Assembly: GCA_001787755.1 (NCBI GenBank)
Contig: MFYJ01000007.1
Location: forward strand, 42,788-76,945
Origin: Candidatus Peribacteria bacterium RIFOXYB1_FULL_54_35
Lineage (GTDB): Bacteria; Patescibacteriota; Gracilibacteria; Peribacterales; Peribacteraceae
DNA length: 34,158 bases
Direction: 5' to 3'
The notes under the pieces were generated by a model. It made no database searches. It was not told where the DNA came from and worked only from the letters and a program-made list of their open reading frames with translations. Position numbers and translations under genes: made by a program. Shown here one piece after another: positions 26,756 through 30,742 of this stretch (its first letter is position 1; every line of letters begins with the position of its first letter).

Positions 26756-26923
26756 ATGGCAAATATCAAATTGTCGGAAGCGCAGCGCAAGCGGCTGGAA
26801 CAGGAGGCGAAGAAGCGCGGCTACGCCCCCGGGCAGTTCCTCGATCTTGTGGCGAAGGGAGTGCGCATCGTCGCCGATCCCATCCCGCCGGTTCGGTGGC
26901 TTTTCAAAAAGAAGAAGAAGTAA
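26756..26923 (+). CDS. Small basic protein of 55 residues
   Basis: Begins MANIKLSEAQRKRLEQEAKK, continues with GYAPGQFLDLVAKGVRIVADPIPPVRW, and ends LFKKKKK. The first half is a charged helix resembling ribbon-helix-helix or anchor peptides. The centre is hydrophobic and the end strongly basic. Function unknown. It is 33 bases after the ATP-grasp stop and probably cotranscribed. The 3' 125 bp from 26804 recur at 29939 as a 5'-truncated copy, so the gene end seems to be the target of the AT-rich island. Confidence 0.65.
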   Translation: MANIKLSEAQRKRLEQEAKKRGYAPGQFLDLVAKGVRIVADPIPPVRWLFKKKKK

Positions 26924-26928
26924 GGAGG
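26804..26928 (+). repeat. Left 125-bp direct repeat bounding the AT-rich island
   Basis: Matches 29939-30063 at 121 of 125 positions, starting GAGGCGAAGAAGCGCGG and ending TAAGGAGG just after the stop codon. The spacing is 3135 bases. Confidence 0.92.
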
Positions 26929-26974
26929 GAGGATACGTTGCTGGAGCAAAGCCAGATGGAGCTCCTTATGGGAA

Positions 26975-26989
26975 CTTATTACAGAATGA
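26975..26989 (+). repeat. Island boundary motif, copy 1 (CTTATTACAGAATGA)
   Basis: Lies 28 bases before the HNH gene. The wider context, CTCCTTATGGGAA then CTTATTACAGAATGA, matches the copy at about 28812-28838. A third copy is at 27541-27555. Confidence 0.6.
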
Positions 26990-27005
26990 AGGAGGAACTA
27001 TAGTG

Positions 27006-27017: not shown

Positions 27018-27530
27018 ATGCCTCAAAACGGTGCACCGGTATCCAATTGGGTGGAATCCCTTCTCCGGCAGGAAATTAAGGGTGTATGCCCAAAATGTGG
27101 TAAGTATGAGAGTGACCAATCGGGTTCTTTTACAAATCATCATATCAATGGAGTTCCTTCAATTTCCGAATATTGGAATCTCATTCGTCTTTGTAGAGGT
27201 TGTCATGATAAATGCGAGAATCACAGGGGAGAAGCGCGCTATGAGCGAGATATAAAAAGAATGAAGGCAAATCTCTTCCGTGATTTTCTCGGTCATACCA
27301 CATACGATCTATTGTTGCGTGCTTATGAGAAGGAAAGCGTTCTTACATTTCCATATATTGCACGCACATTGTTACAATTAGGGCTTGGCACTCTTACGCA
27401 GGAAAATCCTGGTACGTTTGGAGCAGCACAAGATAAGCCGACTTTTTCGGTTTATTCCCTTACTGAACAAGGGAAAAAATGGGCAGGTGAATTAAATTTA
27501 AGCTGGGGTGAGACTGAACAATCAACGTAA
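27018..27530 (+). CDS. HNH endonuclease-like protein with C-terminal winged-helix-like part
   Basis: 170 residues. An HNH/zinc-finger core spans residues 24-66: CPKC (C24, C27), HH at 41-42, Asn54 in YWNLIRLC and CxxCH (C59, C62, H63). This is the typical betabeta-alpha-metal nuclease pattern. Residues 95-165 look like a winged helix (FPYIARTLLQLGLGTL, then VYSLTEQGKKWA). HNH proteins nick or cut DNA. In an island they often serve defence or mobility. Base composition is AT-rich like the rest of the island. No methylase or integrase partner is seen. Confidence 0.75.
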   Translation: MPQNGAPVSNWVESLLRQEIKGVCPKCGKYESDQSGSFTNHHINGVPSISEYWNLIRLCRGCHDKCENHRGEARYERDIKRMKANLFRDFLGHTTYDLLLRAYEKESVLTFPYIARTLLQLGLGTLTQENPGTFGAAQDKPTFSVYSLTEQGKKWAGELNLSWGETEQST

Positions 27531-27540
27531 ATATTTGGAG

Positions 27541-27600
27541 CTTATTACAGAATGAGATGCTGGAGTGGGTGGCTGGATGTTATTACACCCAGAGCAATTT
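27541..27600 (+). repeat. Island boundary motif, copy 2, with possible nuclease remnant
   Basis: CTTATTACAGAATGA at 27541-27555 follows the HNH stop by ten bases. Reading on in one frame gives LEWVAGCYY, similar to LEELVAGAY in the Mrr-like domain at 29451, before a stop near 27617. TTATTACA recurs at 27580-27587. This may be a decayed fragment. Confidence 0.4.
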
Positions 27601-27604
27601 GCCT

Positions 27605-28258
27605 CTAGGGGTTTGAACTACTTGTACATTCGATTTGGACAATATTTTGAAGTTTATCTTCAATGCTTAAGCCACAGTCAAATTTTTCCCGTACCACATT
27701 ATTACCAGTAGGACTTGTACATTTGCTTATAAAGAAGCCCGTAGCACAAGAAGCCCACATCAAATCTTCTGGAGTATTAAATGATGTGAACACCAAAGTA
27801 GATGCATCTAACTTTGTGGAATCGCTGGATATAGGTGCGTTCCAAGCATTCTTAGTAATCGACTGGGAGCCAACTCCACCAACCTGAATTACTTCCCCCA
27901 CGTAAACCATTCTTGCATCGTCGGGGACAGTGCCAGTTTTTTCTTCCTTAATAGGCAATTTGTTTGCTTCACACAGGTATATATCATCACCATTCCGGTA
28001 AAGGCCAGACTTAGTGTATTTTACCTTTCTGATTTCTCCAACGGTAAGTTTTGTTGAAGGTGGGAAAATACAAACACGTTCATCGATATGCCCTGATGGT
28101 AAAGTAAACCTAGTTGATACAAATTGGTTCCCACGATATTCATTTGTGTAGTAATAAGCATCCTCATCAGCAATCCAAGTGATCTCAGACTCCTTTGTAT
28201 CGGGTATTGAACAGCCGATTAATAGTAAACACAGTGCTGTTGCGAGCGATCTTTTCAT
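27605..28258 (-). CDS. Predicted lipoprotein of unknown function
   Basis: 217 residues. MKRSLATALCLLLIGCS is a lipoprotein signal with lipobox LIGC, so the mature protein should be lipid-anchored outside the cell. The rest is beta-rich and polar, with several cysteines near the end (CATGFFISKC, then FDCGLS and IECTSS) that could form disulphides. No family is recognised. The ATG at 28258 is used because the signal begins there. A TATGTT box lies nine bases upstream. It is the only minus-strand gene in the island. Confidence 0.65.
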   Translation of the reverse strand: MKRSLATALCLLLIGCSIPDTKESEITWIADEDAYYYTNEYRGNQFVSTRFTLPSGHIDERVCIFPPSTKLTVGEIRKVKYTKSGLYRNGDDIYLCEANKLPIKEEKTGTVPDDARMVYVGEVIQVGGVGSQSITKNAWNAPISSDSTKLDASTLVFTSFNTPEDLMWASCATGFFISKCTSPTGNNVVREKFDCGLSIEDKLQNIVQIECTSSSNP

Positions 28259-28394
28259 GCCAAATACAACATACCTCAGTGTAAGTGTAGTGATCAACTC
28301 CTTTGTGGTGCGTCAGCAGCGCTTAGCACTCGGAGGCTTATTCATAGCGAATAAGAACTTGTTCTGAAACTATTACATGATAGAATTTCTTTAC

Positions 28395-28664
28395 ATGGCT
28401 ACTGATAATCAGAAAATCTCGAGCACGTATAGTATCCCTATAGTCTGGGCATCGTTATTGTTTGTGAGATGGTCGTTTATCGGATTCGAGACCCATGAGG
28501 GGTTCTGGGAAAATGACTCAATGGAGCTAGTTGCAACAATAGTTGTATCGTCTCTGATTGTATATTTTCTGTTTCGGAAAAAGGAGAAAGAGGTAAGGAT
28601 AAAGAAAGTGATTTACTGGATCTTAATTTGTCTTACAATTGGTATTCTTTCAATCGAAAGCTAG
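28395..28664 (+). CDS. Small membrane protein in the island
   Basis: 89 residues from ATG 28395, or 95 from 28377. It has three hydrophobic stretches: about 13-26, 44-59 and 71-86. A basic loop (FRKKEKEVRIKKV) lies between the last two. No family is recognised. It precedes the receiver-Mrr gene on the same strand by about 190 bases. A link between them is only positional. Confidence 0.5.
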   Translation: MATDNQKISSTYSIPIVWASLLFVRWSFIGFETHEGFWENDSMELVATIVVSSLIVYFLFRKKEKEVRIKKVIYWILICLTIGILSIES

Positions 28665-28840
28665 AGCCGTTGTAAGATTTAATAATAATCAGGTATATCT
28701 CATGTTAGGAGATATGGCTTTAATGGAATATTCATCAGAACATCGAATACTGAGCATCGTAATTTGTAACGTCAATAATGCACATTTGTTCGGGCTTCTT
28801 CAGTTTAGAGTTCCTCATGGGAGATTATTACAAAATGAGA
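28665..28840. other. AT-rich gap before the receiver-Mrr gene
   Basis: No convincing gene. Copy 3 of the island motif (ATTATTACAAAATGA, ending at 28838) and its TTCCTCATGGGAG lead-in lie at the 3' end. Confidence 0.4.
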
Positions 28841-28849
28841 TGATATGAT
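28841..28849 (+). promoter_or_regulatory. Extended -10 of the receiver-Mrr gene
   Basis: TGATATGAT (TG-A-TATGAT), seven bases before ATG 28857. It supports that start over the ATG at 28845, which lies inside the box. Confidence 0.6.
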
Positions 28850-28856
28850 ATGTATT

Positions 28857-29825
28857 ATGGATGAGTTAAGTAGAGCGGATGGTATTGAAGATGTAGATAA
28901 CGTAAGGATTCTTCATATTTCCTCTAATCCTATTGTTTTGAAAGAAGTTGGCAGTTTATTGTTGAGTAGTGGATTTCTTTCTTATGCGGTTCAACGTGAT
29001 GATGTTCCTATGGAGCAAATTATTTTGCTTAAGCCCGATCTTATTCTTTTTGATATAGACTATCCATCATCTCTTTCAATAGTTGAAGAAATATTAAGTA
29101 GAGAGCCAAACATTCCTTTGATAATCATTTCAAGTTTACAGAAGGGAAATGAATTGTTGACGGTGAAAGCACTTAAGATGGGTGTTTCCATATATGTGCA
29201 ACCAAAAGCGATTCAAGATACGCTTATAAGAGCGGTAAAAAGCATGTTGTCATTACAGGGGTGGGAAAATGATGCCCCCAGTATTAGTGTTCTTACAGAA
29301 GAATCGGAACCCTTGCTAATAGGTGATGAGACAGACGAAGGATTATTGGTTAAAAATGTTAGTATACCTTGGTTTGCTCTTTCAAAAGAGTTAAGGAGAA
29401 ACCCCGAATTTCTTTTTAAGATACCATGGAGAAGGCTTGAGGAGTTGGTGGCTGGTGCATATGTGGGAGATGGTTGGGCTAGAGTTGTGTTGACCCCTCG
29501 ATCTGGGGATAAAGGTAGAGATGTAATAGTATCGGGGAGTCCAGGAGGTGATACTATTCAGATAGTTGATCAGGTAAAAGCTTATGCTAAAGGCAATAAT
29601 GTATCAGCAGATGAAGTGAGAGCTCTCATTGGAGTCCTTCATCCTGATAATAATTCGTCGAAAGGTTTTGTAACTACTACATCTTCTTTTGCTCCGGGTG
29701 TTTATAGCGACAAAATCATTCAATCTTTTGTACCAAATAGACTAGAGCTTATAGATGGAGAGAAACTTAGAGCATGCTTATCTAAAATAAATAGAAAGAA
29801 GAAAGGCAATGAAGGAAGAAGCTAA
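28857..29825 (+). CDS. Degenerate receiver domain fused to Mrr-type restriction endonuclease domain
   Basis: 322 residues. Residues 15-131 follow the response-regulator receiver fold: VRILHISSNP, then PDLILFDIDYP with Asp66 at the phospho-acceptor position, LIIISS and VSIYVQP. The acidic metal pair after strand 1 is Ser22-Ser23, and the conserved lysine is Gln115, so phosphorylation is doubtful. After a linker, residues 186-310 match the Mrr catalytic domain: WRRLEELVAGAYVGDGW, SGDKGRDVIV with Asp222, DQVKAY with Gln239 and Lys241 (D...QxK), GFVTTTSSFAPG and LELIDGEKL. Mrr-like nucleases cut modified or foreign DNA. A receiver-like input is unusual. The gene is AT-rich and was probably acquired. 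Confidence 0.8.
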   Translation: MDELSRADGIEDVDNVRILHISSNPIVLKEVGSLLLSSGFLSYAVQRDDVPMEQIILLKPDLILFDIDYPSSLSIVEEILSREPNIPLIIISSLQKGNELLTVKALKMGVSIYVQPKAIQDTLIRAVKSMLSLQGWENDAPSISVLTEESEPLLIGDETDEGLLVKNVSIPWFALSKELRRNPEFLFKIPWRRLEELVAGAYVGDGWARVVLTPRSGDKGRDVIVSGSPGGDTIQIVDQVKAYAKGNNVSADEVRALIGVLHPDNNSSKGFVTTTSSFAPGVYSDKIIQSFVPNRLELIDGEKLRACLSKINRKKKGNEGRS

Positions 29826-29938: not shown

Positions 29939-30063
29939 GAGGCGAAGAAGCGCGGCTACCCTCCCGGGCAGTTCCTCGATCTTGTGGCGAAGGGTGTGCG
30001 CATCGTTGCCGATCCCATCCCGCCGGTTCGGTGGCTTTTCAAAAAGAAGAAGAAGTAAGGAGG
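29939..30063 (+). pseudogene. 5'-truncated copy of the 55-aa gene; right direct repeat of the island
   Basis: Carries the last 39 codons and stop of the gene at 26756, with four base differences in 125. The frame runs up to a TGA at 29924 without a start codon, so it is not expected to be made. It marks the right edge of the AT-rich island. Confidence 0.85.
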
Positions 30064-30528: not shown

Positions 30529-30617
30529 AATTTCGTGGAAGACAAATGAGTGTGCGGTATTTATACCATATTGTTGTGTGCACAGATAAAAAAATGAGCT
30601 GAAGGCAGGCGAGTTTA

Positions 30618-30636
30618 TCCTGAGCTTGTCGAAGGG
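30618..30636. repeat. Dispersed palindromic repeat between tRNA-Gly genes
   Basis: TCCTGAGCTTGTCGAAGGG, with flanking AGGCAGGC and GCCTGCCT extending the stem. It is the most compact member of the family seen at 257-292 and 15384-15426. No gene is seen in 30529-30742. Confidence 0.6.
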
Positions 30637-30742
30637 CCTGCCTGGAAGCTCCACCATGCAAGGGGAAAGAGAGTACATGAGAGAAAAACCGGCTTGTCGG
30701 CCATAGCCTTGGCGACGGCCGAAGGTTTGCCCCTCGCGAGAG

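What the first reader, a model, noticed from the sequence alone, without database searches (positions are those of the whole stretch)
28857..29825. Receiver-like domain fused to an Mrr-type nuclease
The protein joins a response-regulator-like receiver that has lost the acidic pair (Ser22-Ser23) and the lysine (Gln115), but keeps Asp66, to a complete Mrr D...QxK nuclease domain. Such a chain could place DNA cleavage under a protein-protein or ligand signal rather than phosphorylation. It lies in an AT-rich, repeat-bounded island next to an HNH protein, so a defence role is plausible but unproven.
Basis: partly seen in the sequence, partly recalled or inferred. Interest (0 to 1): 0.85.

Follow-up and report, generated by a model that had tools for sequence, protein, structure and literature searches.

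The report
Signal-receiver domain fused to DNA-cutting enzyme
A single bacterial protein joins a worn-out version of the standard bacterial signal-receiving domain to an intact DNA-cutting domain of the Mrr restriction family; it probably cuts DNA on a protein or ligand cue, perhaps against phages, and the pairing looks rare but has arisen more than once.

Summary
Window 28857-29825 (+) encodes 322 aa. Residues 17-133 form a complete (beta-alpha)5 receiver fold (pLDDT 85; best structural match Z 18.5) that has lost the acidic pair (Ser22-Ser23) and the lysine (Gln115/Pro116) but keeps Asp66: a pseudo-receiver. Residues about 150-312 form an Mrr_cat PD-QxK nuclease (E 1.9e-17) with Glu195, Asp222, Gln239 and Lys241 intact. 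The nuclease belongs to a well-supported subfamily (marked here by 'DQVKAY', 100/99 support) found in seven phyla, whose other members carry different N-termini or none. Two more receiver-Mrr fusions were found (Methylococcales, clear; Kordia, weaker) in other Mrr branches; a single origin is rejected (AU p 1.6e-51). Mrr_cat was also found joined to STAS, TIR, tubulin/FtsZ, NusG-KOW and cold-shock domains. The likeliest reading is a swappable sensor-nuclease module in which a phosphorylation-independent pseudo-receiver gates DNA cleavage, probably for defence. It sits in a 3-kb AT-rich island between 125-nt direct repeats; no kinase gene was found on its contig. No paper found describes this pairing. 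Trigger, target and defence role are untested. New variant of a known kind.

The parts
28857..29825 (+). Pseudo-receiver-Mrr nuclease gene (322 aa); an alternative in-frame ATG lies at 28845
28905..29255 (+). Pseudo-receiver domain, residues 17-133, complete (beta-alpha)5 fold
28920..28925 (+). Ser22-Ser23 in place of the Mg-binding acidic pair
29052..29054 (+). Asp66, position of the phospho-acceptor aspartate (kept)
29199..29204 (+). Gln115-Pro116 where the conserved lysine would be
29307..29396 (+). Start of the nuclease module: beta hairpin plus helix, residues about 151-180, shared by the DQVKAY subfamily and not a free linker
29418..29774 (+). Mrr_cat PD-QxK nuclease core, residues 188-306
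29520..29522 (+). Catalytic Asp222
29571..29579 (+). Catalytic Gln239-Val-Lys241 (QxK)
26756..26923 (+). Intact 55-aa gene at the left edge of the island; its 3' end is duplicated at the right edge
26804..26928 (+). Left 125-nt direct repeat
29939..30063 (+). Right 125-nt direct repeat, 97% identical to the left one
27018..27530 (+). HNH-type protein (170 aa), same island
27605..28297 (-). Probable lipoprotein without known domain, same island
28377..28664 (+). Small hydrophobic, probably membrane-spanning protein without accepted domain, same island

Best explanation
A single-gene sensor-effector protein, probably for defence. The N-terminal pseudo-receiver is not switched by phosphate. It senses a partner protein or ligand, or sets the oligomeric state, and so controls the C-terminal Mrr-type PD-QxK nuclease, which then cuts DNA: invading DNA, or the cell's own in an abortive response. 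Shown by computation: the two folds, the intact nuclease site, the broken phosphotransfer site, the accessory, repeat-bounded setting, and the swapping of N-terminal domains on related nucleases. Inferred: that the receiver gates the nuclease, that the gate is an oligomeric or conformational switch, that the substrate is foreign or modified DNA, and that the role is defence.
For: Folds and residues. Foldseek on the whole chain ranks AspBHI and MspJI (Mrr-cat modification-dependent enzymes) highest, with Cdn1 and Can2 (CARF-type ligand-gated nucleases) also in the top seven (low TM over the full chain). Modular swapping: DQVKAY subfamily members carry a cold-shock domain (L075), a cysteine-rich segment (L062) or only short extensions (L065-L069). 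L086 and L123 nucleases are 66% identical but their N-termini do not match beyond the last 30 residues. Other Mrr_cat partners: STAS, tubulin/FtsZ, TIR, NusG-KOW. Independent receiver fusions: three label changes, AU p 1.6e-51. Defence hints: PADLOC PDC-S02 1.1e-9, mREase_IV 2.6e-6; L061 neighbours. Orphan state: six receivers pass the Pfam cut-off in this genome and this one does not; seven histidine-kinase-type ATPase hits, none on contig C7. Precedent for oligomeric control of Mrr: PMC12707154.
Against: No full-length relative with this receiver was found, so the pairing cannot be shown to be under selection. Asp66 is kept, so residual phosphorylation or another Asp chemistry is not excluded. 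The relative placing of the two domains is not well predicted (pTM 0.57). The receiver could be an inert dimerisation handle. Most other subfamily loci show no clear defence neighbours.
Confidence: 0.55

Rival explanations
1. A stand-alone type IV (modification-dependent) restriction enzyme in which the receiver fold serves only as a dimerisation or DNA-positioning handle and senses nothing.
For: Closest solved nuclease folds are AspBHI and MspJI; PADLOC mREase_IV match; several subfamily members have only a short N-terminal extension.
Against: No modified-base reader (SRA, winged helix, Mrr_N) was detected. The repeated pairing of Mrr_cat with signalling domains (receiver, STAS, TIR, tubulin) suggests sensing.
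Confidence: 0.22
2. A true, if degenerate, response regulator: a distant kinase or small phosphodonor still phosphorylates Asp66 and turns the nuclease on.
For: Asp66, Pro70 (D+4), Ser92 at the Thr/Ser position and Tyr113 are kept; the genome has seven kinase-type ATPase hits.
Against: Both acidic metal ligands and the lysine are gone, which is what defines a pseudo-receiver (PMC12632262). No kinase-type ATPase on the contig.
Confidence: 0.08
3. A decaying or accidental fusion in a mobile island with no present function.
For: Single known example; AT-rich island between direct repeats; no orthologue with the same N-terminus.
Against: Open frame with every catalytic residue and a complete receiver core kept; 54% identity to the nearest nuclease with all motifs intact.
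Confidence: 0.12

Closest known systems
MspJI/AspBHI family and EcoKMrr (type IV, Mrr-cat PD-QxK)
   Same: Same nuclease domain family and D...QxK site; N-terminal sensor plus C-terminal nuclease (PMC12707154, PMC3874153)
   Different: Their sensors (SRA, winged helix) read modified DNA; here the sensor is a receiver fold with no known DNA reading
Can2/Card1-type CARF nucleases
   Same: Rossmann-like sensor fused to a PD-(D/E)xK nuclease; whole-chain Foldseek hits
   Different: CARF binds cyclic oligoadenylate made in type III CRISPR defence (own knowledge); no CARF domain was found here
Detocs (defensive two-component system)
   Same: A receiver domain fused to an immune effector (my recollection of Rousset et al. 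2023; the held papers confirm only a three-gene two-component defence system with a PNP effector)
   Different: Detocs is a three-gene kinase relay; here no kinase-type ATPase or second receiver lies on the contig and the receiver lacks its phosphotransfer residues
Bacterial pseudo-receivers (PsR)
   Same: Receiver fold, acidic pair and lysine lost, Asp kept as in about 65% of PsRs (PMC12632262)
   Different: Output domain is a DNA nuclease; the word nuclease does not occur in that review
cRec domains of jumbo phages and conflict systems
   Same: Divergent receiver outside two-component signalling (PMC7824862)
   Different: cRec keeps the catalytic aspartates and is linked to NAD and RNA-repair enzymes, not to Mrr

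Membership tests
Mrr_cat nuclease family (PF04471) | Profile match over the curated cut-off | tested here: met
   63.9 bits against 21, residues 188-306
Mrr_cat nuclease family (PF04471) | PD-QxK active site | tested here: met
   Asp222, Gln239, Lys241 aligned with conserved columns
EcoKMrr-type type IV restriction enzyme | N-terminal winged-helix Mrr_N domain | tested here: not met
   N-terminus is a receiver fold; no Mrr_N match
EcoKMrr-type type IV restriction enzyme | Cleaves modified DNA | not testable with these tools
   Needs a biochemical assay
MspJI family | N-terminal SRA-like modified-cytosine reader | tested here: not met
   N-terminus is a receiver fold
Receiver fold (PF00072) | (beta-alpha)5 fold and profile similarity | tested here: met
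   Z 18.5 over 122 residues; hhalign 96.6%; Pfam 22.1 bits, below the cut-off of 30.2
Functional phospho-receiver | Acidic pair, phospho-acceptor Asp, Thr/Ser and Lys | tested here: not met
   Ser22-Ser23 and Gln115/Pro116; only Asp66 and Ser92 kept
Bacterial pseudo-receiver (PsR) | Recognised as a receiver but lacking key phosphotransfer residues | tested here: met
Detocs | Histidine kinase and second receiver in the same operon | tested here: not met
   No HATPase_c and no other Response_reg hit on contig C7
Can2/Card1 | CARF domain binding cyclic oligoadenylate | tested here: inconclusive
   No CARF Pfam hit; weak whole-chain fold hits only

The most novel reading that the evidence does not exclude
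Pseudo-receivers act as phosphorylation-independent triggers for DNA-cutting immune effectors: a one-gene defence type in which a phage protein or nucleotide signal binds the dead receiver and releases an Mrr nuclease, invented several times by domain swapping.
Probability: 0.2. Interest if true: 0.75.

Novelty: new variant of a known kind. Interest (0 to 1): 0.45.

Why it matters
How bacterial pseudo-receivers are switched is called a mystery in a 2025 review (PMC12632262). A pseudo-receiver with an enzymatic, easily assayed output on the same chain would make that question directly testable. It would also extend the list of sensor domains that may gate Mrr nucleases beyond DNA-modification readers and NTPases.

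Tried and rejected
A search for viral relatives of the full protein found none, and of the nuclease domain alone none. Plasmid and phage searches matched only the nuclease half. The apparent receiver-region matches of L063 (71-312) and L073 (81-313) were checked and are unrelated stretches upstream of short nucleases. An all-in-one alignment of receivers and nucleases misaligned (A8) and was dropped; the receiver was then predicted alone. In the first full-length model residues 94-148 were unreliable because L123 and L133 were badly aligned there. L086, sister of L123, has no detectable receiver. L123's receiver is only weakly supported (Pfam 8.1e-5 but hhalign 2.2%); L133's is clear (96.1%). 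Orthologues of the Kordia fusion in its family: none full-length in 299 genomes. The 23-nt motif was absent from viral contigs. Promoter and terminator scans gave no more than chance.

Full report
What is there. The open frame 28857-29825 on the + strand encodes 322 residues. Pfam finds Mrr_cat at 188-306 (E 1.9e-17) and Response_reg at 21-127 (E 1.8e-4, below the curated cut-off). A phmmer search of solved structures lists CheY and other response regulators first.

Receiver half. hhalign against a profile of 16 receivers that does not include this protein gives 96.6% probability, E 5.2e-10 over 112 columns. AlphaFold2 of residues 1-138 with 19 receiver sequences gives pLDDT 84.6, pTM 0.79 and the full beta-alpha order; structural matches reach Z 18.5 over 122 residues, rmsd 1.9. 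Because that alignment was made of receivers, the model leans towards the fold. At the phosphotransfer site the acidic pair is Ser22-Ser23 and the lysine is replaced (Gln115 or Pro116, depending on the gap), while Asp66, Pro70, Ser92 and Tyr113 remain. This fits the published definition of a pseudo-receiver; in such domains DD2 is non-acidic in about 80% and Asp is kept in about 65% (PMC12632262).

Nuclease half. The Mrr core is predicted with pLDDT mostly 80-96. Glu195, Asp222, Gln239 and Lys241 fall on conserved columns. Foldseek ranks AspBHI and MspJI highest, with the CARF-type nucleases Cdn1 and Can2 also near the top. MspJI and EcoKMrr are described as PD-QxK Mrr-cat enzymes (PMC12707154).

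Relatives. A scan of about 85,000 species genomes with a small alignment found 80 loci. Fifteen of them (L061-L075) share 37-55% identity over the nuclease and, with one exception (L068, SVK), a Q[VIC]K motif. They come from Kaiserbacteria, a deltaproteobacterium (placed in Myxococcota), Gemmatimonadota, Chloroflexota, Acidobacteriota, Planctomycetota and Pseudomonadota. In a tree of 42 nuclease domains 13 of these and the window protein form one clade (100/99), the window protein next to L061 (92/80). None of them has a detected receiver: L075 has a cold-shock domain (E 1.1e-12), L062 a cysteine-rich segment, and most others only short extensions. Elsewhere among the Mrr loci are STAS (L095), tubulin/FtsZ (L098), TIR (L116) and NusG-KOW (L079) partners, and receiver-like partners in L133 (Methylococcales; hhalign 96.1%) and L123 (Kordia; Pfam E 8.1e-5 but hhalign only 2.2%). 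The three receiver fusions lie in different supported groups; holding them together costs 145 log-likelihood units (AU p 1.6e-51). The label needs three changes on the tree, so independent joining is the simplest reading. L086 and L123 are 66% identical in the nuclease yet their N-termini match only over the last 30 residues. In this set the nuclease therefore behaves as a stable effector with exchangeable N-termini.

Distribution nearby. No other full-length protein was found in 74 genomes of the host's family or 380 of the phylum. Mrr_cat itself occurs in 54 of those 380 genomes, so the domain is common there but this combination is not.

Setting. The gene lies in a 3-kb segment of 37-42% GC within a 48-58% background, between two 125-nt direct repeats. 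The left repeat is the 3' end of an intact 55-aa gene; the right is a second copy of that end. A same-genus genome keeps the flanking genes (carbamoyltransferase on one side, two glycine tRNAs on the other) but has other genes between them and not the island, so the region is accessory. The rest of the island holds an HNH protein, a probable lipoprotein and a small hydrophobic protein. No recombinase was recognised. The host genome has six receivers over the Pfam cut-off and seven histidine-kinase-type ATPase hits, none on this contig; the protein is an orphan.

How it most likely works. The receiver cannot bind Mg or be phosphorylated in the usual way (inference from the missing residues). 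It most likely acts as a protein- or ligand-sensing, or oligomer-setting, module that keeps the nuclease off until a cue arrives. EcoKMrr is controlled by its oligomeric state (PMC12707154), which makes a switch through a dimerising receiver plausible. A defence role is suggested by PADLOC matches of the nuclease half and by L061, whose neighbours include a caspase-DEAD-helicase protein and a PDC-S06 protein. Most other loci give no such hint.

Known kinds. Ten literature searches found no description of a receiver-Mrr fusion; the library lacks most subscription papers, and InterPro architectures could not be queried, so a prior listing is possible. The protein is a member of Mrr_cat and of the pseudo-receivers, fails the defining sensor domain of both EcoKMrr and MspJI, and fails the operon criterion for Detocs. 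I rate it a new variant of a known kind.

Noticed in passing
26971-26993, 27537-27559, 28820-28842: A 23-nt motif (GGAGMTTATTACARAATGAGATG-like) occurs three times, close before or after genes of the island, and its 19-nt core nowhere else in the genome at up to 3 mismatches. It looks cassette-like; no match in viral contigs.
   Followed up: partly
26756-26923 and 29939-30063: The 3' end of a 55-aa gene is duplicated at the far end of the island, as at an element inserted into a gene end, but no recombinase was recognised in between. The gene has one weak relative in 74 family genomes.
   Followed up: partly
L098 5254-6390: Tubulin/FtsZ GTPase domain fused to Mrr_cat in Pedobacter yonginense.
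   Followed up: no
L095 5610-6470; L079 1214-2329; L075 5731-6564; L116 5539-6402: Mrr_cat fused to STAS, NusG-KOW, cold-shock and TIR domains respectively.
   Followed up: no
L061 685-10370: A subfamily nuclease flanked by a caspase-DEAD-helicase fusion and an AAA_13/PDC-S06 protein: a likely defence island on a Kaiserbacteria MAG contig of 58% GC, possibly a mis-binned contig.
   Followed up: partly
L063 17-2104: An HNH motif followed by a RecQ-like helicase in one frame, upstream of a subfamily nuclease; read by eye, not scanned.
   Followed up: no
28702-28848: A short ORF overlaps the start of the fusion gene by ATGA (if it starts at 28845), which would allow translational coupling.
   Followed up: no
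30586-30731: About 145 nt beside the glycine tRNAs is repeated at 83% identity on contig C12 of the same genome.
   Followed up: no
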